Assembly (NCBI RefSeq): GCF_900107175.1
Contig: NZ_FNOZ01000045.1
Coordinates: forward strand, 1-33,277
Length of the DNA: 33,277 nt
Direction of reading: 5' to 3'
Source of the DNA: Modestobacter sp. DSM 44400
GTDB taxonomy: Bacteria > Actinomycetota > Actinomycetes > Mycobacteriales > Geodermatophilaceae
The notes under the pieces are model-generated. The model saw only the letters and a list, made by a program, of their open reading frames with translations, searched no databases and had not been told where the DNA came from. Positions 4,556 to 31,267 of this stretch are shown in pieces (the stretch's first letter is position 1; each line of letters begins with the position of its first letter). The position numbers and the translations under genes were made by a program.

Positions 4556-4568
4556 CCGGCTTCCGGTG

Positions 4569-6872: not shown

Positions 6873-6887
6873 GCTACGGAGGCCTCC

Positions 6888-17729: not shown

Positions 17730-18397
17730 GCGGCCCGGCCGTCGGCGAGCACGGTGACCCGCTCGGCGCAGACACGGTCTGGACCCGCGACCAGCTGACG
17801 GTCGCGCTCCTCATGCTGTTCGGGCTCGCCCGCCGCGGCGGGCCCGACACCGCGGCCGCGGCCGCGGAGCTGGGGGTCAGCCGGCGCACCGTGCAGCGGT
17901 GGCTGCGGCCTCGAGCTGACGACCGCGCCCCGATCTCGTCAGCCCACGCGGCCCAGGTGCGGGCCCTGGCCGGCCTCGACGAGCAGGTGCGCCGCGACGA
18001 GCAGCGCACCGCCGACTACGCCCAGGACGCCCTGGCGCGCATCGCGCTGCCCAAGGGCCGCGGCGTGCTCCCGGCCTGGCGGGAGCAGCAGTGGCTGGAC
18101 CAGCACCTGGTGACCATCACCGAACTCGACCACGGCGTCCGGCAGGCGGCCCTGACCCGGGTCACCAGCCGGAGCCGGGAGCGTGGCCAGCCCAACAGCG
18201 GCACGGTGGTCGGGTTCTGCGTGGTGGCGACCCGCTTCCACGCCCAGCTGCTCGTCCACGAGCTGCTGACCCAGATGGGCCCCTGGCGGATCCGGGGCCG
18301 GGCCGTGGCGCCCAAGCAGGGCAGCACCCGCACCTGGCTGCCCGGCGCACCCGACGTCGACCTCAACGAGCTCGCCGTCGCTCATGGGCTGCGGTGA
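17726..18397 (+). CDS. Second HTH protein of the Tpg-like operon
   Basis: A 223-residue protein starting at GTG 17726, overlapping the previous stop as GTGA. Its HTH (AAAAELGVSRRTVQRWLRP, residues 44-62) is very close to that of the preceding Tpg-like protein (AAELGVSRRTAERWVTN), which suggests a paralogous pair or shared DNA targets. The rest is Arg-rich (TRVTSRSRERGQPNSG) with a strand-rich part (VVGFCVVATRFHAQLLVHEL). It lacks the Tpg C-terminal signature. It may be a second telomere or replication protein; its function is unknown. The stop overlaps the next GTG. Confidence 0.6.
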   Translation: MSGPAVGEHGDPLGADTVWTRDQLTVALLMLFGLARRGGPDTAAAAAELGVSRRTVQRWLRPRADDRAPISSAHAAQVRALAGLDEQVRRDEQRTADYAQDALARIALPKGRGVLPAWREQQWLDQHLVTITELDHGVRQAALTRVTSRSRERGQPNSGTVVGFCVVATRFHAQLLVHELLTQMGPWRIRGRAVAPKQGSTRTWLPGAPDVDLNELAVAHGLR

Positions 18398-18720
18398 TCA
18401 CCCTGGTCACACCGTCGTCCTCGCGCTCACCTTCTTCCGTTGTGATCACGGAAGAGGTGCACATCAGCTACAACCCGGCGACCAGCTGCAGCACGGTCGA
18501 TGACCGCTGGACGTCCCCCGGCGGCGTGCAGCGCGGCCGGCTCGGGATCCACCGTGAGCCCTACGGCTGGGCCGGAGTGGAGTGCACGGCCATGCTCTAC
18601 GCGGCCGCCGGTCGGCTGGTGCATCTCGACGTCGTCGCGGCTGCCGGCGCCCAGGCCGACGTCGTCAACCAGGTCGACGACGTCGACCAGGCTGGGCGGG
18701 GAGCCTCCGATGGGGCGTAG
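18394..18720 (+). CDS. Small hypothetical protein, 108 residues
   Basis: The GTG at 18394 overlaps the previous stop as GTGA, placing it in the same operon. No SD is visible; GTG codons at 18442 or 18457 could also be starts, and a cluster of palindromes (GGTGATCACC at 18393-18402; CTTCCGT at 18434-18440 with ACGGAAG at 18448-18454) lies over this region. The segment EVHISYNPATSCSTVDDRW and the ending rich in Asp, Val and Gln do not match a family known to me. It overlaps the next gene by 11 bases. Confidence 0.5.
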   Translation: MITLVTPSSSRSPSSVVITEEVHISYNPATSCSTVDDRWTSPGGVQRGRLGIHREPYGWAGVECTAMLYAAAGRLVHLDVVAAAGAQADVVNQVDDVDQAGRGASDGA

Positions 18721-19609
18721 TCGCAGCGCGAACCCCGACGGGTACGTCGTCGCCGCCGACCGCGGTTCCTCCAGCACCGCGACGAAACAGGCTCAGTCCA
18801 TCGGCGCTGCGGCTGCTGGGGTACGAGCCGAGACACGTGATGGGGCGCGGGAGCTGGACGCAGCCGTGGAGGCGATGCCGGGGCTGACCCGACAGCAGCG
18901 AGACCGGGAACGCGCCATGCCCCGGGCGACCACTGGTGAGGTCCCACACCCTGTCATGGAGCGCGGGCTGCCTGAACCGGACGCGATCCGGGTGCCGTTG
19001 AGCTCCCGCCAGCGCAAGGCCCGGTCGGTGAGCAAGCGGGCCGCGCAGGACCGCCTGCCGGCCACCCAGTTCACCGCGACGGAGGCGTTGATCAGTCGGC
19101 CGGAGCGGTGGTCTGAGCTCAACGACGCCCTCTCCGACGCCGCCGGCGACATCCAGGCTCTCGACGAGGGCCAGCGGCGGAGCATCCAGCGGATCGACCG
19201 GGCCGTGCAGGCGTTCGAGCGGGCCAACGACCGCGGGCACGTCATCTACAGCAACGTCCGTATGCCCCAGGTGATCAACCGATCGAACCTCGAAGGCTTC
19301 GTGCGCAACAACTTCCCGACCGGCACGATCGTCAATTTCGACAGGTTCACCGCCGGCGCGCACACCATGCACGAGATCGAGACCGACGCAGCTCCCGAGG
19401 ACCGCTCGGTCGTGTTCGAGATGCAGACCCGCCGCGGCGCGTACCTCGGCCAATCCGACAGCGTCGACAACACCTACCACCTGCTGCCCCGCGGAATGCG
19501 ACTGCGCGTCGCTGGCTCTCATCAGGCTCGCTACCGCCGCCCCGACGGCACCCTCGGCAGCCGGCACGTCGTCCAACTCGTCGACCTCGACGACCCGTCC
19601 AGCACCTGA
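18710..19609 (+). CDS. ADP-ribosyltransferase-fold-like protein
   Basis: A 299-residue protein with an Arg-rich, disordered-looking first 120 residues and a folded C-terminal part. The order HVIYSNVRMP (178-187), GTIVNFDRFTAGAHTMHEIE (205-224), VVFEMQTRRGAYLG (234-247) and NTYHLLPRGMRLRVAG (254-269) follows the layout of the ADP-ribosyltransferase fold (R, then STS, then ExE followed by LLPRG). The catalytic ExE before LLPRG is replaced by N-T-Y, so it may be an inactive or altered member. The ATG at 18710 has GGGGAG 6 bases upstream. It is the second to last gene of the operon that begins with the replication protein. The family call is tentative. Confidence 0.5.
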   Translation: MGRSRSANPDGYVVAADRGSSSTATKQAQSIGAAAAGVRAETRDGARELDAAVEAMPGLTRQQRDRERAMPRATTGEVPHPVMERGLPEPDAIRVPLSSRQRKARSVSKRAAQDRLPATQFTATEALISRPERWSELNDALSDAAGDIQALDEGQRRSIQRIDRAVQAFERANDRGHVIYSNVRMPQVINRSNLEGFVRNNFPTGTIVNFDRFTAGAHTMHEIETDAAPEDRSVVFEMQTRRGAYLGQSDSVDNTYHLLPRGMRLRVAGSHQARYRRPDGTLGSRHVVQLVDLDDPSST

Positions 19610-19622
19610 AGGAGCACGCGCC

Positions 19623-19799
19623 ATGCCCTACACCGATCGCCACGGTCGCCCCGAGCTCCTGATGCACCCCGACATCGCCCGCGGGGTGGCCTCCTACCGA
19701 CGCGAGGCGCCTCTCGAGGAACCGGCAGAGGGCACCTCCGCCAAGCCGGCCAGCAAGGGTGACCCAGCGGAGCGGCGACCTGAGCGAGCTGCGGGGTAG
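19623..19799 (+). CDS. Small hypothetical protein, 58 residues
   Basis: The ATG at 19623 has AAGGAG 8 bases upstream and starts 13 bases after the previous stop. The short protein (starts MPYTDRHGRPELLMHPDIA) is charged and probably unstructured at its end. It is the last gene of the replication operon. Function unknown. Confidence 0.55.
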   Translation: MPYTDRHGRPELLMHPDIARGVASYRREAPLEEPAEGTSAKPASKGDPAERRPERAAG

Positions 19800-19986
19800 C
19801 CAGAACAGGAGCGGCCTTACGCCGCTGCACGCGCGACACCGCGGACACCCAGGTGAGCGGTCGCGGCTCGAACACGCTTGGTCTCGCTCGACTAGCGCTC
19901 TGAGCTGCAAGTTCGAGTCAGACTCGATGTCACAACACGGGCGCAACGAGACCTTTCCTCAGTACCACTACGTGAGGAGAGATCAG

Positions 19987-21186
19987 ATGCGCCGGACCGG
20001 CGTGCTTGTCGTCACCGCCGCCCTCGGGCTGACCGTCGCCGCCTGCGGCGCCGACGGCGACCCACCCGCTGCCGACGGCTCGTCGGCCGATCTGGCGAGC
20101 TCGCTGGCCCCGCTGTTGGAGGCCGTGCCGGCCGGGCTCGTCGTCCCCGAGACCTTCGATACCACCGCGGGATTCGCCCTGCGGACCGGTGCGGGAGCCG
20201 TGAAGCGCGGCGAGGACGGCCGCGACACCTACGAGGTGACGCCGTTCGGTGTGGCCTCCTACGCCATTGACGACGCGGGCGTGCCGATCATCGAGTCGGT
20301 GAGCATGACCGGGACGGGCCAGTGGCGGCTCGAGGTCAGCGACCCCCTCCAGCCCGACACCGAGATCAAGCCCTCGCTGGTGTCGGTCGTCGGGGAGGAG
20401 ACGACCTGGCTGGGGTTGGTCGAGCACGGCACCGAGACCGGCACCTCCAAGCCGGTGACGCGCGTGAGCACCTACGACGCGAGGACCGGGGCGGTCGGCG
20501 GTCGGGCGACCGTGGACGGCGTCGACCGGATGGAGACCCACCTGGGCTCCAACATCGTGCTCTACGTCGACAGCGACCAGGGGTGGGGCACGGTGGTCAT
20601 CGACCCGGCCACCGGGACGGCGACCCGGCACGACCCAGTCACCGTGCGGGAGGGGGAGTACGAGTGGACCGAGACGGTGTTCGACGTCTACCGCGGCAAG
20701 GAGCTCGCGCTGCGGCAGTGCACCGACGAGTCCTTCTTCAGCTCCTGCCCCTCCGGCCTGCTCTACGGCGGGCAGTGGGTGCCTGGCGGCGAGAGCTACC
20801 TGGGTCTGGTCGTCACCCCCGGTGGCGCCACCGTGGGCCACGTCGACGTGGCCACGGGTAAGGACCTGGGCGGCTGCAGCGGTGAGCCGATCGACGTCGC
20901 GCCGTGGTCACCGTCTGGCCGGTACGCCGTGATCGCCGGCAACGTCGTCGACTTCACCGACCACACCGCGGTGTGCCTGGGCTTCTACCCGATCGTGACC
21001 GCCATCGACGACCAGGGCGTCGGCTACGGGTCGGCGGAGAACGGCGACCGCGTGCGGATCGACACGGCCAACGGCGGTCAGATCACCACGATGCCGGCGG
21101 ACACGGTGCTGCCGAGGGCCATCGGAGCCGGCGGCTACGGGATCTTCCGGACCGACACCTCTGTCGTGGTGCTGCCTCCGCGGTGA
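19987..21186 (+). CDS. Putative lipoprotein, beta-propeller-like
   Basis: A 399-residue predicted lipoprotein. The ATG at 19987 has AGGAGA 6 bases upstream. A short signal peptide (MRRTGVLVVTAALGLTVAAC) ends with lipobox VAAC and Cys20, and an acidic/Ala/Ser linker follows. The rest is strand-rich with repeated motifs such as STYDARTGAVGGRATVDG, VVIDPATGTATRHD, HVDVATGKDLGG and RIDTANGGQITTM, like blades of a WD40/PQQ-type beta-propeller. Its role is unknown; it sits outside the membrane. It has its own leader after the replication operon, with 187 bases between. Confidence 0.75.
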   Translation: MRRTGVLVVTAALGLTVAACGADGDPPAADGSSADLASSLAPLLEAVPAGLVVPETFDTTAGFALRTGAGAVKRGEDGRDTYEVTPFGVASYAIDDAGVPIIESVSMTGTGQWRLEVSDPLQPDTEIKPSLVSVVGEETTWLGLVEHGTETGTSKPVTRVSTYDARTGAVGGRATVDGVDRMETHLGSNIVLYVDSDQGWGTVVIDPATGTATRHDPVTVREGEYEWTETVFDVYRGKELALRQCTDESFFSSCPSGLLYGGQWVPGGESYLGLVVTPGGATVGHVDVATGKDLGGCSGEPIDVAPWSPSGRYAVIAGNVVDFTDHTAVCLGFYPIVTAIDDQGVGYGSAENGDRVRIDTANGGQITTMPADTVLPRAIGAGGYGIFRTDTSVVVLPPR

Positions 21187-21209
21187 CCTGCCCCGTGGGC
21201 CGGGCGGAA

Positions 21210-21537
21210 TCAGAACGGCGGGCTGTCCTCGGGGGCCTGCTCGATGTTCGGTAGGCCGGCGTCCACCGGCCTACCGCGAACCCGAAGCCGGGGGCGATCT
21301 CCCGGTAGTACTCCACGCAGCCGAACCAGCCGCCGCCCCGCTCCTCATCACGCATCCAGCCGTGCAGCAGGGCCGGGGCGTGCCACTCACCGCTCCACCG
21401 GACGCGGATCGGCTGGGGTGGGTCGATGACCCGCTCGGCATCCTCCAGCGCGGTGCGGAGGTCGTCCCAGCTGGTCACGATCAGGTGATCGGGGACCGGG
21501 AGCTGCCGTGGCGGCCGGCCAGGATCGCGGGACGACA
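21210..21537 (-). pseudogene. Hypothetical protein, frameshifted
   Basis: A small unrecognised protein reading SWDDLRTALEDAERVIDPPQ, then RVRWSGEWHAPALLHGWM and WFGCVEYYREIAPGFGFAVG. At 21260-21266 the frame breaks. A natural ending (VDAGLPNIEQAPEDSPPF and TGA at 21210-21212) lies one base off, so a base seems to be missing. The break lies exactly inside an 11-base inverted repeat. The start is uncertain (GTG at 21537 or 21477). Without the shift the frame runs on antisense into the lipoprotein gene. Confidence 0.5.
21249..21276. repeat. Perfect 11-bp inverted repeat in a broken gene
   Basis: CGGTAGGCCGG (21249-21259) pairs perfectly with CCGGCCTACCG (21266-21276) around the loop CGTCCA. It lies where the minus-strand hypothetical gene loses its frame. 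It may act as a hairpin terminator for the lipoprotein gene (stop at 21186), or it may have caused a polymerase or sequencing slip. Confidence 0.55.
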
Positions 21538-21651
21538 CAGCCCCCACTATCGGCCCTGGGCCGGCGACGCCGTGCCCGCACCACACCAGCGGCCCGGTGC
21601 GGGCCGGCCGTGTCAGGGTGACCGCATGGTCAGCTGCGGGCGCGGTCGACG

Positions 21652-22314
21652 GTGATCGCGCTGGCTGCGCTGGTCATCGGGGCGCTCGGGCTGGTCGTGG
21701 GCGGGCTGCTCCGCCGCCGCGTCGGTGACCTGGTGCCCACCGGTGCCCCGTCGGGGGCCGCTTCGGGGCGAGTGCGACGTCCCGTGCCGGCGGGGGTGCT
21801 CGAGGTGGTCACCGGCGCCCTGTTCGCCCTGACCCTCCTGTGCGCCAGCGTCTCACCCGTCCTGCCCGCCTACCTGTGGTTCATCGCCGCTGCGGTGGCG
21901 CTCACCGTCGTCGACGTCCAGCACCAGCTGCTGCCGCGGCGTATCGTCTGGCCGGCTCTGGCCGGTGGCGAGGTGCTGCTGTTGCTCGCCGCGGCGACCA
22001 CCTCCGCGTGGGAGGCGTTGCTGCGTGCTGCGCTGGCCAGCGTGGCGCTGCTGGTCCTGCACCTGCTGATGGCGCTGATCTCCCCCTCGGGCATGAGGAT
22101 GGGCGACGTCCGGCTGGCCGGCGTCACCGGGCTGTAGCTGGGCTGGGTGAGCTGGCAGGCCGTGGTGGTGGGCGCCTTCGTGCTGCAGGCGGTGCTGGCC
22201 GTGCCGCTGCTGCTCACCCGCCGCGCGGACCGGCATGCCCGGCTGCCCTTCGGGCCGGCGATGGTGGCCGCGGCCGCACTGACTGTGGGGATCAGCTCGC
22301 TGCTGGCTCGGTGA
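21652..22314 (+). pseudogene. Prepilin peptidase (type IV), internal TAG stop
   Basis: A membrane aspartyl protease of the A24 type IV leader peptidase family that trims prepilin signal peptides. Several hydrophobic helices are visible. The two catalytic aspartates are in VVDVQHQLLPRRIVWP and in GMRMGDVRLAG (the GMGD motif). The frame from GTG 21652 stops at TAG 22135-22137, directly after GVTGL. Reading through gives LGWVSWQAVVVGAFVLQAVL and a last helix, ending at TGA 22312-22314, which makes a normal length of 220 residues. A W or Q codon changed to TAG would explain it. No pilin or secretion partner gene is in the window. Confidence 0.7.
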
Positions 22315-22753
22315 CCGCTGCGCCGGCCGGCTGCTGCTGCGCCCGGCTGGTGCCGTAGCGCTGCTGCGCCCACTGGCGGGTGCGCGAGATCCCCTCGACG
22401 GTGGCGATCGTGTCGGCGACCTCGGCCCAACTGAGCTCCGATGCACGGGCCTGGTCGACCGCGCTCTGGCGGTCCTCGGGGGCCGCCGCGGCGAGAGCTG
22501 CTCGAGCTCGGCGGACGGCGCGGGCGGGGTGGTTGGCCAGCCAGGTGTCGATCGCTGTGGCGTCGAAGACGACTTGCCGGTCCACCCGGCCCTGCTGGGG
22601 CCGCGGCATGCCCGCGGTTACCCGAACCCGCTGGTTCATGCCCCGGCCGGCGGTGGCCGCGGCCGCACGCAGGGTGGAGAGGGCCGGCCGCGGGACACCG
22701 AGCTCGGCGACGATGCGGTCGGCGACCTGGTCGTAGGTGTAGTGCCCGGCCAC
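22292..22753 (-). CDS. Hypothetical DNA-binding protein
   Basis: A 153-residue protein with two similar HTH-like segments. The first, YTYDQVADRIVAELGVPRPA, is at residues 5-24; the second, LSWAEVADTIATVEGISRTR, is near residue 105. A basic stretch (RPQQGRVDRQVVFDATAIDTWL), which resembles an excisionase/MerR-type wing, lies between. The start is GTG at 22753; no strong SD is visible. Its 3' end overlaps that of the prepilin peptidase gene by 23 bases on the opposite strand. It is divergent from the WhiB gene, across a 111-base promoter region. Confidence 0.6.
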   Translation of the reverse strand: MAGHYTYDQVADRIVAELGVPRPALSTLRAAAATAGRGMNQRVRVTAGMPRPQQGRVDRQVVFDATAIDTWLANHPARAVRRARAALAAAAPEDRQSAVDQARASELSWAEVADTIATVEGISRTRQWAQQRYGTSRAQQQPAGAAVTEPAAS

Positions 22754-22769
22754 TCCGTCGCCCCCAACC

Positions 22770-22802
22770 CATTTGACAGTCCGCAGCGTGAGTGGGGATC
22801 AT
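22770..22802 (+). promoter_or_regulatory. Promoter before the WhiB operon
   Basis: TTGACA (22773-22778) and GATCAT (22797-22802) are 18 bases apart. The -35 block CATTTGACAGTCCGCAGC (22770-22787) matches the internal promoter in the replication ORF at 17 of 18 bases, and GGCCTGACCAGCC follows at 22833, as it does there. Confidence 0.6.
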
Positions 22803-22864
22803 CGCAGACGCGTCGCTGACCCAGGCGGCGCCGGCCTGACCAGCCAGCGATGAGGGAGCACCCG

Positions 22865-23404
22865 ATGAACGCCTTGATGCACCGACCCGCCGCGAACTAC
22901 GCTGACCGCACTACGAGCATGCAGGTTGTTCCGGAGGCACTTCACCGCGGTGGGGTCGCCTCCGGTTCACGTTTTGGGCCTTCTGCCTCCTGCGCCGGCC
23001 GCGAGGACCTGGACTGGGTCCCGGACTCCGAGGACCTCCTCGTGCCCCGCCTGCAGCGCCGGCTCTGCCTGTCCTGCCCGACCCGGCAGTCCTGCCTGAC
23101 CCGGGCCTTGGAGACCAGGTCGGTCGGCTACTGGGCCGGCACCACCACCGCCGACCGTGCTGGCCTGGCCGGGGTCGACGGGCCGCTGCTACCGCTCCTC
23201 GACGCCCGCCAGGACCAGCTGGCCCGGGCCGCCGCGGCCGCCGCGGCCGCCGACCGGGCCAAGGCACTGCACCCCGTCGGGGAGGGGAACCTGTGGTGGT
23301 ACCGCCGACGAGGCTGCCGCTGCGCTGAGTGCCGTGCCGCGAACGCCGCGCACCGGGCCGCGGAGCGTGCCCGGGCAGGCTCCCGGACAAAGGTGGCGGC
23401 ATGA
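22865..23404 (+). CDS. WhiB-family protein with a GCRC zinc-like tail
   Basis: A WhiB-like iron-sulfur regulator of 179 residues. Four cysteines lie at C43, C68, C71 and C77 (C-x24-C-x2-C-x5-C, the Fe-S cluster pattern), followed by GYWAGTT, corresponding to the family's G(V/I)WGG turn. The C-terminal RRRGCRCAECRAANAAHR is a second, Cys-rich motif of a type seen on actinophage and plasmid proteins. The ATG at 22865 is preferred over 22850 because GAGGGAG ends 6 bases before it. WhiB proteins bind sigma factor and control transcription; the targets are unknown. The stop overlaps the next gene as ATGA. Confidence 0.85.
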   Translation: MNALMHRPAANYADRTTSMQVVPEALHRGGVASGSRFGPSASCAGREDLDWVPDSEDLLVPRLQRRLCLSCPTRQSCLTRALETRSVGYWAGTTTADRAGLAGVDGPLLPLLDARQDQLARAAAAAAAADRAKALHPVGEGNLWWYRRRGCRCAECRAANAAHRAAERARAGSRTKVAA

Positions 23405-24339
23405 CCAGCCAGACGCCCCTCGCCGCGACCCCCGACCGGCTGGAGGGCGCGCTGGGGTCGCCGTGGGCCCGGGTGAAGGACCCCACGCCCATCCCCGACC
23501 CGATCGACGGCGACCAGATCCGGGTGCTGCCGGCCGAGCAGCTGCAGCGGCTCCTGCGGGACAACCTGCTGCCCCGCGAGTCCGACGTCGACGGCCGGGC
23601 CCGCTGGGTGTCGCTGTGGGCGGTGCTGGCCGATGACCCCGAGCTCACCGAGCTGGCCTTCGACGTCCTCGAGGACCTGATGGACGTCACCGAGGACGCT
23701 CTCGATGACGGCGTCCTGGACCAGATGGCTGGCAAGCGCGCCCGGAAGTTCCTGCGTAGCTGCGAGGAGGCCTGGTCCCGGCTGCAGGTCGACGAGGAGC
23801 GGCCGCTGGGATGGGTCGGCCGGCGCGCGACGGCGTTGGACCCGCTAAGCCGGCGGGTGCTCGAGCAGCTGGTGCTGGCGATCGCCGGGCACCGCCACCA
23901 GCTGACCGGTCACGGCGACGCCCAGCGCGTCGACGAGCGGCTGTGGGCGGTGCTGGCCGACGTCGACCTCGACCCGGCCGGCTTCCGGCGGGGACCGCTG
24001 CCGCCCTACCCGGTCGACTCCGGGGATCGCTCCCGGCCCGTGCAGCGCCGCGGCAGGATGACGCTGCCGCTAGTCGACGCCGAGCGCCCGCTCGGGTGGG
24101 CCGGCGCCGCGGCCGCGGGGTTCAAGCCCTCGGCCCGACCGGTGCTCGAGCAGCTCGTGTTGGGCATCGCAGTGCACCGGCAGGCGACCGCGAACGCCGG
24201 CGCCGTACGCCCCGACGTCGACGAGACGCTGTGGTCGACGCTGGCCCACGTCGGGCTGGATCCACTCACACCTGGACTCGCCGGTGAAGCCATCCAGATG
24301 CCCACCGGCCCGGTAAAGCAAGGCGACGAAGGACGCTAA
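23401..24339 (+). CDS. Hypothetical protein with a duplicated domain
   Basis: A 312-residue acidic protein, translationally coupled to WhiB (ATGA). Residues 131-192 and 226-288 are repeats of each other: both have ERPLGW near the start, RxVLEQLVL(A/G)IA, a VDExLW segment and end in LDP. A third partial copy (VSLWAVLADDPEL) is at residues 70-82. The family is not known to me. The link with WhiB suggests a role in the same regulatory circuit, which is inference. Confidence 0.6.
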   Translation: MTSQTPLAATPDRLEGALGSPWARVKDPTPIPDPIDGDQIRVLPAEQLQRLLRDNLLPRESDVDGRARWVSLWAVLADDPELTELAFDVLEDLMDVTEDALDDGVLDQMAGKRARKFLRSCEEAWSRLQVDEERPLGWVGRRATALDPLSRRVLEQLVLAIAGHRHQLTGHGDAQRVDERLWAVLADVDLDPAGFRRGPLPPYPVDSGDRSRPVQRRGRMTLPLVDAERPLGWAGAAAAGFKPSARPVLEQLVLGIAVHRQATANAGAVRPDVDETLWSTLAHVGLDPLTPGLAGEAIQMPTGPVKQGDEGR

Positions 24340-24477: not shown

Positions 24478-26343
24478 CTAGGGTTCTATCAACAAGGGTC
24501 GCGTCTCGACCACGGGCTGACCTGCGTAGGTTTTGAGATGATTCATCCATCGGTTCAACTCATTTAGTTTGTTAACGTTCCATAAGTCATGGTCGGCGAA
24601 TCGATCCTTCATCAAGTCGCCTAGCTGCGAATCTACATCACTAGCTGATTCCAGTATTTCTTGCGCGAGTAGGGTGTGTACCCACTTGAGCGCAGCACCT
24701 CGGCCTGTAAATAGCCCTGATGCAATTGCTGGCCGATCGGGATTCATTACTTCAAGTCGATGACGGGCATCCCGCCACAGCGGCGTGCCTTGAGCGTGGG
24801 ACATCTTGTTGAGCGCGTCGTTCAAAGGGGACAGAGGCTTCCACTCGACTCCCGCTTTTCCTAGCCAATCCCGAAATTTGCTTCCGGGATTGGCCAGAAT
24901 CCCGGCCGCCTGATATGGGTTTCGTCGCCACACTCTCAGTTGTACTGCCATTTCCAGCACAGTCCGCAAGGCGGCCATAGAGCGATCATCATCCTCTAGC
25001 CATAGCCAGTACGCGGTGCGTACGGCCGACGCGGCAAGAGCGGCGGCGGCAGCGGGCTCTGGCTTCTTAAGCCAACCGCTGAGTAGGCCCGTGCTTTCTG
25101 CCACCATGATGTAGTTGTAGTTGAATCCAAAAGAGGTGTCCTCGAACGGTAATGCACTTGGATTGCCCGACGGCTCGCCATCCTCGACAGCGAAAACATC
25201 ACCAGCAGTCCGAATGGCTCGAACCCGCCGAGTGACGAAAGCTAGCTCCGTAGCAGAGGGGCCAAGAGGTTGAGCTGCGGAGAGCGTGTGCAACCTGAGA
25301 AGGTGGTCATACTTTCTTACCGCCTGCTCCATGCTCGGCTCTGCGCGACCTCGAATAGCCAGCCCCCGAACCACTGGTTCGGTGTAGTTCCACGGGATTG
25401 GCGGCATAAGACCCACGTCGAACGGTGCAATGTTGCCACTCTTCGCCTTCCCTTTTTCAATAGAAAGGCGATCGATTAGGCCACGAAGGCATATCGTACT
25501 GAGCCTTAGAGCACTCAAGATCAGATCCGCAGCACATTCCACAACACGCGCAATGTCTGGTGATGGCGTTTTGAGCAGGTCATGACTTTCCCAGGCAACG
25601 GCTTCTCTGTGCTCTCGACCATGAATTAGCTCAGACAGGTCGGCATACACGTCGCCAGCCATCGGGGCGCTACCAACAGACGCATTGGTGGCTTCGCTCG
25701 GCGTTAGGGGAAAGGGGAATGTCCAGCCACCCGCTATTTGCAGAGTTGGGTACGCGTTTGGGATCTCACGGGGCAACGGTGGGACATTGGAATTATAGTC
25801 GCCAGACTTTGCCCATACGCGACTCATGAACTTTTCGAATGATTCGTCGTCAGTCTGAGTCCAACCGTTCACATCAGCCATGCGTTGAGTCCAACGTTCA
25901 AGCTGGTTCCGAGCGATCAGGGCCGCGCCAGCGTACTGCCCCACCATGGTTAAGCGAAGCGCTGAAACGATGCTGTTGAGTCCCCATGCATAATGACTTG
26001 GCCAATTTCGACCATAGCTGTTAGCAGCGATCCCCAAAGTGCTGTAACCGAGCTTCAACAAGGCAGCATCTAGGGGAGGTACGTCCGTCAAACACAAGTA
26101 TGCAGCCATCAAAATTTTTTTGGGTGGACGTTCGGAGGACTCAAACCGCACTTCATGCCGGTGATCTAGCAACGCTTGGAACCAAGGCATTCCGCGACTT
26201 GCGATATGCATGAATTCTTCAACTGAAGCGCCCCTGCTTCTTACACGAGACAATGCCGCGTTGTACTCCTTATTTTTCCGGAGTTCGGGATCGCTTTTGA
26301 CTGCGGCGCGGCGCTCTGCTTTCCGTCGACTGTCCTTGCCCAT
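24478..26343 (-). CDS. Large hypothetical protein in an AT-rich island
   Basis: An unrecognised cytosolic protein of about 621 residues. The base composition is markedly more AT-rich than its surroundings (about 40% GC over 24541-24600). The N-terminus is Lys/Arg-rich (MGKDSRRKAERRAAVKSDPE). The central segments YADLSELIHGREHREAVAW and MAALRTVLEMAVQLRVWRRN look helical, and the C-terminus is rich in charged residues. No catalytic motif is seen. The ATG at 26343 begins 64 bases after the CysH stop on the same strand; the frame also has a TTG at 26361. Foreign cargo, possibly defence-related, is an inference from its place beside the Cas operon. Confidence 0.55.
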   Translation of the reverse strand: MGKDSRRKAERRAAVKSDPELRKNKEYNAALSRVRSRGASVEEFMHIASRGMPWFQALLDHRHEVRFESSERPPKKILMAAYLCLTDVPPLDAALLKLGYSTLGIAANSYGRNWPSHYAWGLNSIVSALRLTMVGQYAGAALIARNQLERWTQRMADVNGWTQTDDESFEKFMSRVWAKSGDYNSNVPPLPREIPNAYPTLQIAGGWTFPFPLTPSEATNASVGSAPMAGDVYADLSELIHGREHREAVAWESHDLLKTPSPDIARVVECAADLILSALRLSTICLRGLIDRLSIEKGKAKSGNIAPFDVGLMPPIPWNYTEPVVRGLAIRGRAEPSMEQAVRKYDHLLRLHTLSAAQPLGPSATELAFVTRRVRAIRTAGDVFAVEDGEPSGNPSALPFEDTSFGFNYNYIMVAESTGLLSGWLKKPEPAAAAALAASAVRTAYWLWLEDDDRSMAALRTVLEMAVQLRVWRRNPYQAAGILANPGSKFRDWLGKAGVEWKPLSPLNDALNKMSHAQGTPLWRDARHRLEVMNPDRPAIASGLFTGRGAALKWVHTLLAQEILESASDVDSQLGDLMKDRFADHDLWNVNKLNELNRWMNHLKTYAGQPVVETRPLLIEP

Positions 26344-26407
26344 AGGGCCATGATGCCTCAACCCGCGGTCGTTTCACTGCGACAAGGAGGGCTTTCGGTC
26401 TTCCCGC

Positions 26408-27259
26408 TTAGATGAACTCGCGCAGCCGGGGCAGTACCGCGGATAGTTTCTCGAAGAGCTCGGGCCAGCCGCGGCGTAGCCAGGTGGCGCGGCCTTGCTC
26501 GAGCTGGCTGCCGTCGATCATGTGGGAGACCCGCTGGGCGTGCTCGGGGGCGCCGAGAGCGCGCAGCTTGGCGTACACGGGGTTGACGGGCAACTGGTGG
26601 CGGGCGAGGTAGGCCCAGACGTCGTTGGTCTTCCAGTCCCAAATTGGGCCGAAGGCGACGGTGCTGTCGGTGCGGCGGACCACCCCGCCGTGGCGGGCGC
26701 GTCGTGCCGTCTCGGAACGGGAGGCGGCCTGACAGCGGCAGGTGCAGTGCTGGGCGAGCTCGGTGCGCAGGGCGTTGGCGTAGAGGGCGGCGCGGCCGCG
26801 GGACTCCTGGGCGCGCACACCCCAGAGCTCGCCAGGCCCGTGGTCGCGGTGGGCGCGGCTGGCCGGTTCGGTGATGAGGATCTGGTGAAGGTCGGTGCGC
26901 TGGGCTGGCTGGGGTGCGCGGTGGTCCCAGGCTCCGCTGGCGGCCAGCACTTCCAGGGTGGTCTGGCGGGCGGGGTACCAGTGCAGGTCCAGGTGCAGCT
27001 GGTCGGTGATCTGCTCGAGGTAGCGGTAGGTCTCGGGGAACTCGAAGCCGGAGTCGAAGAAGGCGACCGGGACGTTGGGCTCGATGGCGAGGATCTGGTG
27101 GAGGACGGCGAGGGAGTCCTTGCCGCCGGAGAAGGCGACGTAGCCGTCGTGGGCTTCCAGGTGGGCGGTGATGCGGTCGGCGAGGCCGGCTTCGGCCGCG
27201 CGGGGGCGTTGTAGGGCCCGCAGGGCGTGCAGGTCGAGGCCGGGGCCGGGCTGGGTCAC
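26408..27259 (-). CDS. cysH-like: CysH-like PAPS reductase-family protein of type IV-B
   Basis: A 283-residue PP-loop ATPase-fold protein. SGGKDS at residues 44-49 is the pyrophosphate-binding loop, preceded by YVAF. VAFFDSGFEFPETYRYLEQI and FGPIWDWKTNDVWAYLARH are hallmarks of PAPS-reductase/DndC-like enzymes. The Cys-containing C-terminal motif of true CysH is absent, so sulfate reduction is unlikely. The GTG at 27259 lies 8 bases after the csf3 stop, as expected of the CysH-like gene that marks type IV-B systems. In those systems its role is unsolved; it may use ATP to modify a substrate. Confidence 0.88.
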   Translation of the reverse strand: MTQPGPGLDLHALRALQRPRAAEAGLADRITAHLEAHDGYVAFSGGKDSLAVLHQILAIEPNVPVAFFDSGFEFPETYRYLEQITDQLHLDLHWYPARQTTLEVLAASGAWDHRAPQPAQRTDLHQILITEPASRAHRDHGPGELWGVRAQESRGRAALYANALRTELAQHCTCRCQAASRSETARRARHGGVVRRTDSTVAFGPIWDWKTNDVWAYLARHQLPVNPVYAKLRALGAPEHAQRVSHMIDGSQLEQGRATWLRRGWPELFEKLSAVLPRLREFI

Positions 27260-27266
27260 CGAACGG

Positions 27267-27998
27267 TCAGCCGTCGAGCAGTGCGGGCAGGTGAAGCAGC
27301 TGCTGGCGGGCGGGGTGCATGTAGGGCGGGCGGAGGCCGGCGGTGCCGCGGCCGCCGTCGGGCACTGTGGGATGGCCGGCCAGGCAACCGGCCGGGGTGG
27401 GGCGGCCCAGCGTGCCGTCGGGGTGCAGGTGGGCGGCCTCCCAGGAGTCGAGGGTGGGGTCAGGGGTGACCGTCCAGGCCAGCACGTGGCCTTCGCCCTG
27501 GGAGCGCTTCTTGCCGATCGCGGTGACGGTCTGCAGTAGGGCGGCGATCGCGTCGACGTCGCCGACCGCGCGCCAGCTGACGGCGCGGCAGGTGGTGACC
27601 AGCAGGGGCATGCGGCGGGCCCGGTAGCGGCCTTGGCGGTCGGAGACGGAGGCCGGCAGCGTGGCGGCCAGCTGCTCCATAGCTCGGTGGTCGGTGCGCC
27701 CGGTCCAGGTGCGCACCTCGGGCAGGGGGAGGGCTTGGTCCTCGGGGTGGGCGCAGGTGGCTGCCCAGTGCCAGGTGTCGACGTCGGTGGTGCAGCGGGC
27801 CAGGGGGAGGTCGAGGTCGGCGGGGTCTGGGGTGTCGATGAGCCGGTCGGTGAGCTGGCCGGCGGCGTGGGTGGCGGCCTTGTGGTCGGCCCACAGCGCG
27901 GAGGCCAGGAGGCCGTCGAGGGCGATGCCCCAGGGGGCTGCTTGGGCGATGCCGCCGGCGAGGTCGGCGCGGACGGTGAGGGGGACGTGGCCGGTCAT
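27267..27998 (-). CDS. csf3: Csf3, Cas5-like RAMP protein of type IV
   Basis: A 243-residue RAMP-fold subunit expected to hold the 5' end of the guide RNA in the type IV complex. The Gly-rich loop of RAMP proteins is visible as IGKKRSQGEGHV (residues 161-172). The N-terminus MTGHVPLTVRADLAGG is a RAMP-like first strand, and ALDGLLASALW is a helix typical of Csf3/Cas5 relatives. The ATG at 27998 overlaps the csf2 stop as ATGA; the longer open frame upstream belongs to csf2's antisense shadow. Position between csf2 and cysH is canonical. Confidence 0.85.
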   Translation of the reverse strand: MTGHVPLTVRADLAGGIAQAAPWGIALDGLLASALWADHKAATHAAGQLTDRLIDTPDPADLDLPLARCTTDVDTWHWAATCAHPEDQALPLPEVRTWTGRTDHRAMEQLAATLPASVSDRQGRYRARRMPLLVTTCRAVSWRAVGDVDAIAALLQTVTAIGKKRSQGEGHVLAWTVTPDPTLDSWEAAHLHPDGTLGRPTPAGCLAGHPTVPDGGRGTAGLRPPYMHPARQQLLHLPALLDG

Positions 27999-28888
27999 GC
28001 AAGGGCCTGCAGGGCGGTGATCGCAGCGGCGGGGTCGGCGAGCAGGTGGGCCCGCCAGTCGACGGCCTCGGCGGGTTCGCCGACGAGCTGGGTGCAGGTG
28101 AGCTCGGTGGCGACCTGGCCGTGGCCGATGGCGGCGCGGCCGCCGATCCGGCCGTCGCGGGTGAAGACCTCGAGTACCTCGGTGAAGAAGGCGACCTCCA
28201 GCGGGGTGGCCCGGTCCAGCCGCAGCCAGGTGCTCATCGTGGTGCCGGCCGGCAGGGTCTCGATGCGGTAGCGCATGAGCTGGTCGGTGTCGGAGGCCTC
28301 GGGGAGCTCGTCGAGCTGGGGGATGCCGTCGATGACCGGGATGCGGTCGACGGCGGTGAGCTCGGCGAAGGCGTGGTTGCTGGTGTCGTCCTGGCGGACG
28401 TAGGTCTCGATCTGTGTGGCGTCGAAGGCCGGCAGGGCGGCCTGGGGGGCGGGGTCGAGGATGTGGCTGGTCTCGGCGAGGTGGGGGACGACCTTGCCGA
28501 CCTGCAGGCAGCCGTCGATGATCCGGCCGCCGGCGGCGCAGCCGAAGACCCCGACCTGGGGGATGAGCTCGCGCAGGGTCTGCAGGCGACGGCCCGACAG
28601 CGGTTCCCCGGTGGTCTTGGCCAGGGAGCCGCCGCCGCGCAGGGCGTGGGCGGCGGCGAGGGGCAGCTGCTGCTCGTAGTGCAAGACGTCGCGCAGCAGC
28701 TCTTCCCCGATGCGCCGCAGCCGGCCGCGTCGGCCGTTGCCGGACACGATCGGGACGTGGATGGGCACGCCGAGGGGAGTCAGGACCAGCTCGCGGCGCA
28801 GGAGGGTAATGGTGCCGCGGGTCTCGCCGCCGTGGGCGATCGAGGAGGTGGCGCGCAGGGTGGCGGTCCACTTCAGAGTGCTGGGCAC
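27995..28888 (-). CDS. csf2: Csf2, Cas7-like backbone of type IV
   Basis: A 297-residue Cas7-type subunit that should form the filament along the RNA. Supporting segments are LRATSSIAHGGETRG near the N-terminus, HVPIVSGNGRRGRLRRIGEE (residues 44-63, the RNA-contacting Csf2 motif), an acidic middle with a thumb-like loop, and IGGRAAIGHGQV near the C-terminus (RAMP Gly-loop type). The GTG at 28888 has AGGAG 10 bases upstream and lies 2 bases after the cas11 stop. The order cas11-csf2-csf3 fits type IV-B. Confidence 0.87.
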   Translation of the reverse strand: MPSTLKWTATLRATSSIAHGGETRGTITLLRRELVLTPLGVPIHVPIVSGNGRRGRLRRIGEELLRDVLHYEQQLPLAAAHALRGGGSLAKTTGEPLSGRRLQTLRELIPQVGVFGCAAGGRIIDGCLQVGKVVPHLAETSHILDPAPQAALPAFDATQIETYVRQDDTSNHAFAELTAVDRIPVIDGIPQLDELPEASDTDQLMRYRIETLPAGTTMSTWLRLDRATPLEVAFFTEVLEVFTRDGRIGGRAAIGHGQVATELTCTQLVGEPAEAVDWRAHLLADPAAAITALQALA

Positions 28889-28890
28889 GG

Positions 28891-29448
28891 TCAGCTGGCT
28901 CCTGGGGTCGAGCGGGTGTCGCGGACGGCGTCGGCGACGATGCGGGTGCGCAGCAGCAGGGCCTCGGTCTCCAGCCGCAGCGCCATGAGCACCGGGGTGG
29001 AGTCGGCGCGCAGCAGCTGCTCGAGCTCGGTGCGCTCGGCGGCGTTGCGGGGGGCCGAGCCGAGTTCGGAGGCCACGTCGCGCCACCAGCGGCGCAGGGT
29101 GCCGGCTCGGTAGGTGGCGGTGATGACCCGGTCGGGCAGCAGCTGCTCCCAGTAGGTGCGTCGGTAGCGGCTGACCCAGCCGTTCTGCCAGTCGATGCCG
29201 TAGTGGATGAGCAGCAGCAGACGTTCGGCGACGCCGGCGGGCCCGGTGAGAGGCGTCATGCGCTCGCCCAAGACGGCCAGCCAGCGGTCGGTGGGGCTGT
29301 CCTCCAGACCGCCGGCCGCCGACGCACCCGCCCAGCCGGTGGCATCGGTGGTGGGAGATGTGGTGGCACCGATGGTGGCAGTGTCGGTGGCGGCGGCGGT
29401 GGTGGTGCTGCTGGTGGTGGCCGTGGTGGCCGTGGTGGTCACCGTCAC
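28891..29448 (-). CDS. cas11: Cas11-like small subunit of type IV-B
   Basis: A 185-residue protein whose folded part (about residues 53-175) is an all-helical bundle with many Arg, Trp and Leu (DRWLAVLGER, GWVSRYRRTYWEQLLPDRV, TLRRWWRDVASELG), as expected for the small subunit that packs along the Cas7 filament. The first 40 residues are a Thr/Ala repeat encoded by a GGT/GGC-rich tract on the plus strand (about 29355-29445), unusual for Cas11. The GTG at 29448 overlaps the previous stop as GTGA. Identification rests on position and helical content rather than on a sequence motif. Confidence 0.7.
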   Translation of the reverse strand: MTVTTTATTATTSSTTTAAATDTATIGATTSPTTDATGWAGASAAGGLEDSPTDRWLAVLGERMTPLTGPAGVAERLLLLIHYGIDWQNGWVSRYRRTYWEQLLPDRVITATYRAGTLRRWWRDVASELGSAPRNAAERTELEQLLRADSTPVLMALRLETEALLLRTRIVADAVRDTRSTPGAS

Positions 29449-29675
29449 CGGATCACCCAGAAGCCGGGCAGGGCCATGAACTGCGGCGCGCTGTACAGGC
29501 AGGTCAGGCACCCGACCTCCCCCGGGCTGCTGGCATGCCACCCGCTGCTGCGGCCGCCGCACAGCGTGGCGCGGGGCAGCTCCTCAGGCCGGTGCCCGGG
29601 CATGGCAGGTGAGTGCAGCACCAGGTGGGTCAGTTCGTCCGCGGGGCTGGTGACGGTCTGGAACGGTGAGCTCAT
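29445..29675 (-). CDS. Small Cys/His protein inside the type IV-B operon
   Basis: A 76-residue protein between csf1 and cas11. The ATG at 29675 overlaps the csf1 stop as ATGA, and the stop overlaps the cas11 GTG. Cysteines and histidine at C39, H47, C56 and C59 (LCGGRSSGWH then GCLTCL) make a probable zinc-ribbon site. Similar small zinc-finger proteins occur on actinomycete plasmids. It is not one of the standard type IV-B components known to me, so it may be an accessory subunit or a regulator. Confidence 0.6.
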   Translation of the reverse strand: MSSPFQTVTSPADELTHLVLHSPAMPGHRPEELPRATLCGGRSSGWHASSPGEVGCLTCLYSAPQFMALPGFWVIR

Positions 29676-30364
29676 CGACGGGCCTTTCGCAGGTTCGACA
29701 GGGGAGATCGAGGACGAGGTGCCGCCGGCGGGACGCCGGTGTCGGCGACGGTGGCGTAGAGCGCGAGGTCCAGCCACGGGCGTCGGGATTGCCATGGGTC
29801 CAGCGCTGCCCAGTCGGCGAGGAGGGCCGGGTAGTTCTCCGCCGGCAGCCGGGACAGCATGCTCCAGGGCGGCGCGGGGGCGGTGAGCATCCGCGACCCG
29901 AAGCCCAGCCGGCGGACGCGGCGGAGGGCGGCCAGTCGCTCGACGTCGGCGGGGGCCCAGGACAGGTGGGCGTCTTCGATCGTGACGCGCCCCCAGGCCG
30001 CAGTGGGCGCCAGGTGCTTGCGGCCGGGGTGCAGCGGCACGATCAGCGCCCGGTCCGCGCTCAGGGGGACCTCGAGGTGCTCACCGACCTCGGTAGGGGT
30101 CAGGGCCTGCAGCTGGCCGGCTCGGGTCACCAGGTGGGCGGTGGCACGCAGCGGGGGGTGCCGGTAGGCCCAAGCGCACGGCGGGCAGACGCCGGTCCGG
30201 CCGGGGTCGGCCCATCCGTCGTAGCCGGTGAAGGACCGTGAGACCACCTCGGTAGCCGCGATCAGCGGCCCGCCGGCCCCGCAGCGGGCGCAGAGGCCCT
30301 CCCGGGTGGGTGGCTCGACGTCGGGGGCGCCGGCGGCGTGCCAGGCCATCGTCAGGACGTCCAT
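29672..30364 (-). CDS. csf1: Csf1, large-subunit-like protein of type IV
   Basis: A 230-residue protein, first of the operon. Two CxxC pairs (C25-x2-C28 in LCARCGAG and C60-x2-C63 in GVCPPC) form the N-terminal zinc finger that marks Csf1. The rest includes a helical part (ADVERLAALRRVRRLGFGSRM) and a C-terminal SRLPAENYPALLADWAALDP. Csf1 is the short counterpart of Cas8 in type IV complexes. The ATG at 30364 has GAGGAG about 10 bases upstream; the frame remains open to 30547 but that part looks non-coding. The divergent methyltransferase gene starts 330 bases away. Confidence 0.8.
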   Translation of the reverse strand: MDVLTMAWHAAGAPDVEPPTREGLCARCGAGGPLIAATEVVSRSFTGYDGWADPGRTGVCPPCAWAYRHPPLRATAHLVTRAGQLQALTPTEVGEHLEVPLSADRALIVPLHPGRKHLAPTAAWGRVTIEDAHLSWAPADVERLAALRRVRRLGFGSRMLTAPAPPWSMLSRLPAENYPALLADWAALDPWQSRRPWLDLALYATVADTGVPPAAPRPRSPLSNLRKARR

Positions 30365-30694
30365 CGGCTGTGGGTCTCCTCGGGGGCGCGTGTCCGCTCC
30401 TGCCCCGAGGAGGCGGCCGGCGGGTCTCAGTCGTCTCAGGAAGGTGAGCGCTGGGCGTGCGGTGTGACCGCCGGTCGGCTCGAGGTGCGCTTGCATCGCC
30501 GCTTGGTCTTCAGGTGCGAGAGCCACCCGCCGATAGATCCAGCTCACGCCTCAGCTGAGGGCTGCACTGGCCACTGCCACCCGACCGTTGGACTGACCGT
30601 CCGACTCTGGTGCCCGCCCAGCCCGGGGCTGTGCGCCGCAGGCTGTCCGTGGCGGGTCACCGCATCGGCACGCGCCGGGTCCTACCCTCCAGCG
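30365..30694. promoter_or_regulatory. Divergent promoter region of csf1 and a methyltransferase
   Basis: No gene is supported here. It must hold the Cas operon promoter on the minus strand. A perfect 12-base palindrome, CCTCAGCTGAGG, is at 30549-30560. On the plus strand TACCCT at 30683-30688 lies 6 bases before the GTG of the methyltransferase, which fits a -10 box of a leaderless actinomycete transcript. No CRISPR-like repeats are present. Confidence 0.45.
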
Positions 30695-31267
30695 GTGGAT
30701 CTCCAGCCGGTGCGTGACGCGTACTCGACCATGTCTGCGCAGTACATCGGCCTGTTCGACGGCGGCTGGCAAGATCACGAGGACGACACTGCTCTCGTGC
30801 GGCGGCACCTGACCGGACTTTCCGGACCGGTGCTTGACCTTGGTTGCGGGCCCGGTCACTGGACCGCCTATCTGCACTCCTTGGGCGCACAGGTCACGGG
30901 CGTCGACATGGTCCCCGAGTTCATCGCGCACGCTCAGGCAACTCATCCCGGCCCGGAGTTCCAGCTCGGCTCGATGACCGAACTGGATGTTCCCGAGCAC
31001 TCCGTGGCAGGGATCCTCTCCTGGTACTCGACCATCCACCTGCCGCCGCCGGAACTCGACCGCGTGCTCACCGTGTTCCGCCAGCTCCTCCACTCCTCCG
31101 GCGTGCTCGTCGTCGGCTTCTTCGACAGCGACGACGACGTGGCCGGGTTCGACCACAAGGTCGTCACCGCCTACCGCTGGCCCGTCGACACCTTCTCCCT
31201 TGACAACTTCCGGGGTTCCGATCTTGAGGCGATCCGAAATTTCAGAGGTGGCTGTCACGCTGCTTGA
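30695..31267 (+). CDS. Class I SAM methyltransferase, probably 3'-truncated
   Basis: A SAM-dependent methyltransferase of 190 residues. VDLQPVRDAYSTMSAQYIGL starts the protein; LDLGCGPGHWTAYL is motif I, VTGVDMVPEFIAHA motif II and GILSWYSTIHLPPPEL motif IV. The start is GTG at 30695, with a TACCCT box just before it that suggests leaderless translation. After WPVDTFS (about 31199) the sequence LDNFRGSDLEAIRN does not look like the usual last strand and helix of this family, so the end seems replaced. The substrate is unknown. Confidence 0.7.
   Translation: MDLQPVRDAYSTMSAQYIGLFDGGWQDHEDDTALVRRHLTGLSGPVLDLGCGPGHWTAYLHSLGAQVTGVDMVPEFIAHAQATHPGPEFQLGSMTELDVPEHSVAGILSWYSTIHLPPPELDRVLTVFRQLLHSSGVLVVGFFDSDDDVAGFDHKVVTAYRWPVDTFSLDNFRGSDLEAIRNFRGGCHAA

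What the first reader, a model, noticed from the sequence alone, without database searches (positions are those of the whole stretch)
26408..30364. Complete type IV-B CRISPR-Cas operon without an array
Csf1 (two CxxC pairs), a Cas11-like protein, Csf2 (IVSGNGRRGRLRR), Csf3 (IGKKRSQGEGHV) and a CysH-like protein with SGGKDS are encoded in one overlapping minus-strand operon. Type IV-B is array-less and its function and RNA source are largely unknown; this copy is intact and lies beside replication genes. That makes it a strong candidate for a poorly understood system. The component names follow established type IV nomenclature; the function is not shown by sequence.
Basis: partly seen in the sequence, partly recalled or inferred. 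Interest (0 to 1): 0.9.

Follow-up and report, generated by a model that had tools for sequence, protein, structure and literature searches.

The report
Type IV-B operon with extra gene
This is a complete plasmid-type CRISPR relative (type IV-B) that has no spacer array of its own, in a branch whose operon carries one extra small conserved gene.

Summary
In detail: csf1, cas11, csf2, csf3 and cysH are intact on the minus strand at 26408-30364, and the four csf/cas proteins match type IV profiles at E 7.6e-58 or better. Csf2 and Cas11 match chains of the solved Mycobacterium IV-B complex 7JHY. No array was seen in the contig and no Cas1 or Cas3-HD in the host draft genome. It is an array-less type IV-B system, a known kind. 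Of 33 csf loci searched it is intact in 6 and broken in a seventh. It keeps His17/Cys39/Cys56/Cys59, matches no curated family, and had no strong match away from csf operons in the plasmids, phages and genomes searched. Five csf1 leaders of this branch share an octamer that shuffling does not reproduce. No conserved guide RNA was found. CysH keeps SGGKDS without a conserved cysteine; Csf2 lacks the proposed catalytic Asp. Function remains inferred.

The parts
29672..30364 (-). csf1 (Cas8-like large subunit, 230 aa, four-Cys zinc-finger pattern)
   Evidence: PADLOC typeIV_Cas8 8.7e-72; the four Cys columns each hold Cys in 29 of 30 aligned Csf1
29445..29675 (-). ORF76, small His/Cys protein (76 aa), extra operon gene of this branch
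   Evidence: 6 intact copies counting the window; the other five are 32-71% identical to it; invariant H17, C39, C56, C59; ATGA overlap with csf1 in 6 of 6; no curated family
28891..29448 (-). cas11 (small subunit, 185 aa; Thr-rich N-terminal extension)
   Evidence: PADLOC typeIV_Cas11 7.6e-58; 7jhy chain 4.7e-31; GTGA overlap with ORF76
27995..28888 (-). csf2 (Cas7-like backbone subunit, 297 aa with the GTG start chosen here)
   Evidence: PADLOC typeIV_Cas7 1.3e-99; 7jhy Csf2 chain 1.7e-58
27267..27998 (-). csf3 (Cas5-like subunit, 243 aa)
   Evidence: PADLOC typeIV_Cas5 8.3e-93
26408..27259 (-). cysH-like gene (CasCysH, 283 aa), PP-loop SGGKDS, no conserved Cys
   Evidence: Pfam PAPS_reduct 6.2e-26; 27-row alignment; model pTM 0.68 matches PAPS reductases
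30439..30446 (-). CACCTTCC element in the csf1 leader
   Evidence: shared by the five leaders of the branch that were compared; a common 8-mer arose in 0 of 3000 shuffles of four of them
30376..30412 (-). possible leader hairpin (arms CTCCTCGGGG and CCCCGAGGAG) that would cover the csf1 ribosome-binding region
   Evidence: 120-nt leader MFE z -2.1, p 0.03; weak, not conserved as one structure

Best explanation
A complete type IV-B (array-less) CRISPR-Cas operon on a plasmid-type element in a high-GC actinobacterium. Shown by homology: Csf2 and Cas11 would build the double filament around RNA seen in 7JHY, with Csf1 and Csf3 as end subunits. Inferred: the complex loads ready-made cellular RNA of fixed length rather than its own crRNAs, exposes it for base pairing, and recruits CasCysH, which uses its PP-loop to hydrolyse ATP at the alpha-phosphate and adenylate or otherwise modify a bound nucleic acid. 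Inferred: ORF76, made by translational coupling between Csf1 and Cas11, is a small metal-binding partner of the complex, most likely at the Csf1 end. The likely benefit is to the plasmid, in conflict with other plasmids or with host RNA-guided defence. Confidence is about 0.97 for the family assignment, 0.8 that ORF76 is a real operon gene with a role in the system, and 0.25-0.3 for the functional model.
For: Profile matches; solved IV-B chains. CysH: SGGKDS in 27 of 27 homologues and no cysteine column conserved in more than 12 of 27; modelled fold matches PAPS reductases. ORF76: conserved in 6 loci with an exact 4-nt overlap with csf1 in 6 of 6 and with an in-frame cas11 in 5 of 6. No Cas1, no Cas3-HD and no clustered I-E-like palindromes in the host draft genome. 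Synteny with plasmids pXCEL01 and pCPRO01. Heterogeneous RNA of about 55-60 nt bound by the Mycobacterium complex (PMC7937560, parts 1 and 2 of 4 read); ATP alpha-hydrolase proposal (PMC8175902, passages).
Against: No experiment that I saw supports CasCysH activity on nucleic acid. The ORF76 structure model failed (mean pLDDT 46.9), so metal binding rests on conserved His/Cys only. ORF76 dN/dS is 0.52-0.86 in the four pairs compared, higher than csf1, csf2 and csf3 in 4 of 4 pairs and than cas11 and cysH in 3 of 4; between the window and G006 its own frame is only slightly better conserved (71%) than the two other frames of the same stretch (64-65%). ORF76 was not found in 26 of 33 csf loci, so it is not essential to type IV-B in general. 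CasCysH was not found in the flanks read of 3 of 30 loci (L051, L057, L061).
Confidence: 0.65

Rival explanations
1. The complex borrows crRNAs from another CRISPR system in the cell and acts as a mobile RNA-guided effector.
For: Proposed in the literature as told in PMC8175902 (passages); the Mycobacterium JS623 megaplasmid carries a I-E system beside IV-B (PMC7937560).
Against: No Cas1 and no Cas3-HD match in this draft genome; the 9 palindrome sites found lie on 9 different contigs; other CRISPR types and Cas6 were not searched genome-wide. The Mycobacterium complex did not enrich co-expressed crRNAs.
Confidence: 0.1
2. It is an RNA sponge: it soaks up host guide RNAs non-specifically and protects the plasmid from RNA-guided host defence; CysH has a separate or regulatory role.
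For: Non-specific RNA loading, and negative co-occurrence with other CRISPR systems as cited in PMC7937560; no dedicated conserved RNA found here; no Asp at the proposed catalytic position of Csf2.
Against: Does not explain the conservation of the CysH PP-loop motif (27 of 27) or the His/Cys protein ORF76.
Confidence: 0.3
3. ORF76 is a chance reading frame in a high-GC operon and not a gene.
For: High-GC DNA produces many spurious frames; dN/dS only moderately below 1; in the window-G006 pair the other two frames of the stretch are 64-65% identical against 71% for ORF76, and one of them has a single stop in the window and none in G006.
Against: Six loci keep start, stop, length (76-78 aa), the 4-nt overlap with csf1 and 15 invariant residues, down to 32% identity; the records of pXCEL01 and pCPRO01 annotate it as a CDS.
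Confidence: 0.05
4. The operon encodes its own guide RNA in the csf1 leader.
For: 7 of 24 leaders folded, the window's among them (-2.1), have z at or below -2.1, more than chance alone would give; the strongest are pXCEL01 (-7.2), L057 (-4.8) and L043 (-3.0).
Against: The other 17 leaders lie between -1.6 and +1.4 and no common structure is seen by eye; no Rfam match up to E 1; little sequence conservation in the upstream stretches.
Confidence: 0.05

Closest known systems
Type IV-B CRISPR-Cas of Mycobacterium sp. JS623 (complex 7JHY)
   Same: csf1, cas11, csf2, csf3, array-less operon; Csf2 homologous over nearly full length and Cas11 over its C-terminal two thirds
   Different: Here ORF76 is inserted between csf1 and cas11, and the Csf2 loop is four residues shorter with Gly at the Asp42 position, if that is numbered as in the deposited chain
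Rhodococcus plasmid IV-B loci (e.g. RHA1 pRHL2, pRHL3)
   Same: Same five core genes, plasmid location
   Different: cysH lies upstream on the opposite strand; no ORF76 found
Xylanimonas pXCEL01 and Cellulosimicrobium pCPRO01 plasmid loci
   Same: Same six-gene order with ORF76, shared CACCTTCC leader element, syntenic backbone
   Different: The csf operon points the same way as the backbone genes in these plasmids and the opposite way in the window; the records annotate the csf genes as hypothetical proteins and cysH as a PAPS reductase family protein
PAPS reductase (CysH), BrxP, DndC/SspD
   Same: PP-loop family: Pfam PAPS_reduct 6.2e-26, PADLOC BrxP 4.2e-14, SspD 3.2e-5, DndC 8.4e-5; PAPS reductases nearest by sequence and fold in the PDB
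   Different: No conserved cysteine, so not a cysteine-dependent reductase by sequence

Membership tests
Type IV-B CRISPR-Cas | Csf2 (type IV Cas7) | tested here: met
   PADLOC 1.3e-99; 7jhy 1.7e-58; NCBIfam 1e-13, below its equivalog cut-off
Type IV-B CRISPR-Cas | Csf3 (type IV Cas5) | tested here: met
   PADLOC 8.3e-93; NCBIfam 9e-14, below its equivalog cut-off
Type IV-B CRISPR-Cas | Csf1 (Cas8-like large subunit) | tested here: met
   PADLOC 8.7e-72
Type IV-B CRISPR-Cas | Cas11 small subunit | tested here: met
   PADLOC 7.6e-58; 7jhy 4.7e-31
Type IV-B CRISPR-Cas | linked cysH-like gene with SGGxDS and no catalytic Cys | tested here: met
   PAPS_reduct 6.2e-26; 27-row alignment
Type IV-B CRISPR-Cas | no CRISPR array and no crRNA maturase in the locus | tested here: met
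   No array-like repeats in the whole contig; no Cas6 match among the 27 window ORFs scanned. The rest of the genome was checked only for Cas1, Cas3-HD and one palindrome pattern
Type IV-B CRISPR-Cas | plasmid location | tested here: inconclusive
   Contig backbone is in part syntenic with plasmids pXCEL01 and pCPRO01, but the contig is linear, 33 kb, ends unknown
[quoted passage not shown]
   Needs purification
Type IV-A | dinG helicase, cas6/csf5, array | tested here: not met
   None among the operon proteins; no array in the contig
Cysteine-dependent PAPS/APS reductase | conserved catalytic cysteine near the C-terminus | tested here: not met
   In 27 rows the C-terminal part holds a Cys in one row only (L047); L015 and L049 are incomplete there

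The most novel reading that the evidence does not exclude
The window represents a distinct six-gene variant of type IV-B in which a previously undescribed His/Cys protein (ORF76) is an obligatory subunit of the Csf complex, translated between Csf1 and Cas11, and decides which RNA or target the complex accepts; this would open the RNA-source question in a system with a defined minimal operon.
Probability: 0.3. Interest if true: 0.65.

Novelty: new variant of a known kind. Interest (0 to 1): 0.45.

Why it matters
Type IV-B is a CRISPR subtype whose RNA source and purpose are described as unknown (PMC8175902, passages). A branch with an extra conserved protein, a compact co-directional operon, a shared leader element and no Asp at the proposed catalytic position of Csf2 offers a sharper experimental system than the Mycobacterium complex, in which Csf1 and Csf3 were not resolved (PMC7937560). 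In seven literature searches (listings, and for three papers passages or parts) I saw no mention of a further operon protein of this kind; the library lacks most subscription papers and the main type IV survey (PMC7038947, not held), so this is not proof of novelty.

Tried and rejected
A guide RNA in the operon: 24 csf1 leaders (window plus 23) were folded with 200 shuffles each. Seven have z at or below -2.1 (window -2.1, L036 -2.3, L042 -7.2, L043 -3.0, L049 -2.4, L056 -2.3, L057 -4.8); the other 17 lie between -1.6 and +1.4. Leaders are thus somewhat more structured than shuffles overall, but I saw no shared structure. For L013 the csf1 start, and so the leader, is not established. Rfam gave nothing at E up to 1. 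Among seven 400-nt upstream stretches (L036's is 179 nt) only window-L036 and a marginal L011-L041 match appeared, and among five downstream stretches none. Rejected as a common feature.

ORF76 as a broad phage or plasmid zinc protein: I had expected this from recall. tblastn over 72,556 plasmids gave the two csf plasmids plus two matches at E 0.3; phages none; of 112 family genomes 3 strong hits, all at csf operons, and 2 weak ones; of 394 class genomes 1 strong hit (the window) and 11 weak ones at E 3e-4 to 1e-2, ten of which contain a stop. PHROGs gave nothing and Pfam nothing convincing (best: one member of six at 0.001 to a transit-peptide family).

ORF76 structure: mean pLDDT 46.9, not used for a fold search. 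Small ORFs near csf in L047, L055, L058, L054 and L050 were read and do not look like ORF76. A viral-contig scan with Csf2 found no relative. No promoter-like or terminator-like site by simple consensus in 26300-30900. In the class search 14 of 19 genomes with a type IV Cas7 match have only weak C-terminal matches (E 1e-9 to 1e-3) in open frames of 317-1247 aa; not treated as type IV. Three fetched distant loci (L038, L039, L040) matched the window's proteins only weakly and were dropped from the 30-locus comparisons, although L038 and L039 match the type IV Cas7 model at 1.6e-65 and 5e-58; they were kept in the ORF76 search, which found nothing there. In L013 the start at the ORF76 stop opens only a 62-aa frame, so the cas11 junction is confirmed in five, not six, loci.
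Full report
What is there. The window is the whole of contig C63 (33,277 bases) of a draft genome of 182 contigs and 5.0 Mb. The host's family probably includes Klenkia: genome G249 of the same family has its match on a 15,901-base contig, the length of the named Klenkia contig found independently. In the host's genus 2 of 23 genomes hold a Csf2 match, the host among them. On the minus strand, from 30364 down to 26408, lie csf1, ORF76, cas11, csf2, csf3 and cysH. Profile E-values are 8.7e-72 for Csf1, 7.6e-58 for Cas11, 1.3e-99 for Csf2 and 8.3e-93 for Csf3 (PADLOC); CysH matches PAPS_reduct at 6.2e-26. Pfam has no match over its cut-off for the four csf/cas proteins, and NCBIfam's Csf2 and Csf3 models match at about 1e-13 but under their cut-offs. 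Csf2 and Cas11 match chains of the IV-B complex 7JHY at 1.7e-58 and 4.7e-31. This is far beyond chance.

Array and partners. No array-like repeat family appears in the contig, no Rfam family up to E 1, no tRNA. In the host draft genome there is no Cas1 and no Cas3-HD match at E 0.001, although the same searches ring in 9 and 7 of 14 control genomes. A I-E-like palindrome pattern gave 9 sites on 9 contigs, so no array of that form. Other CRISPR types and Cas6 were not searched across the genome, and the draft may miss sequence.

The missed gene. ORF76 (29445-29675) starts inside the csf1 stop (ATGA) and ends inside the cas11 start (GTGA). Homologues sit at the same place in G006 (71% identity to the window), Klenkia (53%), Xylanimonas pXCEL01 (51%), Cellulosimicrobium pCPRO01 (43%) and Tessaracoccus MC1679 (32%), with 15 invariant residues including H17, C39, C56 and C59. 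The 4-nt overlap with csf1 is present in 6 of 6; the 4-nt overlap with a full-length cas11 frame in 5 of 6, L013 being the exception. Tessaracoccus coleopterorum has a frame-broken copy. A profile of the six, run with all filters off over all frames of at least 45 codons in 33 loci, found nothing else below E 0.01: 6 intact and 1 broken of 33. Plasmid tblastn found pXCEL01 and pCPRO01 and, at E 0.3, two unrelated records among 72,556; phages none. Of 112 family genomes 3 gave strong matches, all at csf operons (G000, G006, G249), and 2 weak ones; of 394 class genomes 1 strong (the window) and 11 weak. No curated family fits. dN/dS is 0.52 (window-G006) to 0.86 (window-Klenkia) over four pairs, higher than csf1, csf2 and csf3 in every pair, and in the closest pair the two other frames of the stretch are 64-65% identical against 71%; GC bias makes dS uncertain. 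Constraint is therefore moderate, and the case for a gene rests on the conserved position, junctions and residues across distant loci. I read it as a real, lineage-restricted operon gene. Metal binding is inferred from residues only; the model was poor.

Where the branch sits. In trees of Csf2 (30 loci) and Csf3 (29) the window groups with G006 and Klenkia, near the Promicromonosporaceae plasmids, Tessaracoccus, Wenjunlia and Mangrovactinospora, which have cysH downstream on the same strand. Of 11 Rhodococcus loci 10, and of 6 Mycobacterium/Mycolicibacterium loci 5, have cysH upstream on the opposite strand; the remaining two have none in the flanks read. Supports inside the window's branch are weak in Csf2 (0.65-0.73), its inner order differs between the trees, and Wenjunlia and Mangrovactinospora lack ORF76, so gain versus loss is open. 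FastTree with midpoint rooting was used, which is rough.

Catalytic residues. SGGKDS is present in 27 of 27 CysH rows (L015 and L049 are incomplete). No column holds Cys in more than 12 of 27 rows; 13 of 27 (including the window, HCTCRC) carry a short insert with two or three cysteines, often CxxCC in Rhodococcus, and 14 do not. The modelled fold (pTM 0.68) is closest to PAPS reductases, E 1.8e-9, TM-score about 0.5. This agrees with the published statement that the catalytic Cys is absent (PMC8175902, passages). In Csf2 the loop that holds the proposed catalytic Asp42 of JS623 (PMC7937560) is four residues shorter here. If Asp42 is numbered as in the deposited chain (the Asp of SVGSD), its column holds Gly in 16, Thr in 8, Ser in 2 and Asp in 4 of 30 loci, the four all mycobacterial, and Gly in the window. 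That speaks against target RNA cutting by this residue in most of the loci compared; the numbering is my inference.

Leader element. The 120 nt before csf1 in the window, G006, Klenkia, pCPRO01 and pXCEL01 all hold CACCTTCC, 48-89 nt upstream. Of 3000 dinucleotide shuffles of four of them (G006 left out as homologous to the window), 0 shared an 8-mer and 8 a 7-mer. The octamer occurs twice in the 33-kb window. It also precedes a backbone gene in pCPRO01 and pXCEL01 (37 and 47 nt before the annotated start) and, further off (about 230 nt), in G006, but not in the stretches read in the window and Klenkia. I take it as a plasmid-family promoter or operator element; its reader is unknown. No sigma-70-like promoter was found by consensus.

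Context. Backbone genes at 11623-24339 have homologues in the same order in G006, Klenkia and, in part, pXCEL01 and pCPRO01; the WhiB-type regulator is found in all four, and a prepilin peptidase is annotated in both plasmids (its window copy matched by tblastn only in G006). The csf operon is inverted relative to the backbone compared with the two plasmids. So the element is plasmid-like, but a linear 33-kb contig cannot prove it.

How it most likely works. By homology to 7JHY, Csf2 and Cas11 form the filament on RNA. Which RNA is unknown: the Mycobacterium complex bound heterogeneous RNA of about 55-60 nt and did not enrich co-expressed crRNAs (PMC7937560, parts 1 and 2 of 4), and here no array, maturase or conserved leader RNA was found within the searches named. 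My working model is loading of cellular RNA followed by CasCysH-catalysed, ATP-dependent modification of a bound nucleic acid, as proposed in PMC8175902 (passages), with ORF76 as an additional metal-binding partner. The sponge model is about as likely. The 2025 classification (PMC12669027, passages) describes IV-B as lacking effector nucleases and most IV-B loci as lacking arrays.

Verdict. The family assignment is secure and known. New here, as far as the searches reach, are ORF76, its tight linkage, the branch's operon order and the leader element. Interest 0.45.

Noticed in passing
30439-30446 (-): CACCTTCC, one of two copies in the window, lies in the csf1 leader; the same octamer precedes csf1 in four relatives and also a backbone gene in L036, L041 and L042.
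   Followed up: partly
L042 6590-6655 (pXCEL01 csf1 leader): Exceptionally stable hairpin that covers the csf1 ribosome-binding region, z -7.2 against shuffles.
   Followed up: partly
26732-26749 (-), within cysH: Cysteine-rich insert (HCTCRC) present in some CasCysH lineages (13 of 27 rows have two or more Cys there) and absent from others.
   Followed up: partly
29300-29448 (-), cas11 N-terminus: Thr/Ala-rich N-terminal extension of Cas11 in the window, G006 and Klenkia (178-185 aa) that pXCEL01 and pCPRO01 lack (140-144 aa).
   Followed up: no
24478-26343 (-): 621-aa ORF directly downstream of cysH, no family and no relative among the frames of the 33 csf loci; likely variable cargo.
   Followed up: partly
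18500-19609 (+): Backbone gene with homologues in six compared loci, lying just upstream of csf1 on the opposite strand in L037; by recall it resembles a mono-ADP-ribosyltransferase, but Pfam gives no match at 0.001.
   Followed up: partly
3932-6985 (+): Resolvase, Mu-type transposase and AAA ATPase genes, a tniABR-like transposon (the name is recalled).
   Followed up: partly
22850-23404 (+): WhiB-type regulator (Pfam 1.7e-6), also annotated near csf in seven plasmid loci.
   Followed up: no
L022-L035: Weak matches to the C-terminal part of the type IV Cas7 model in open frames of 317-1247 aa, 12 of 14 in one family of the class; nature unknown.
   Followed up: no
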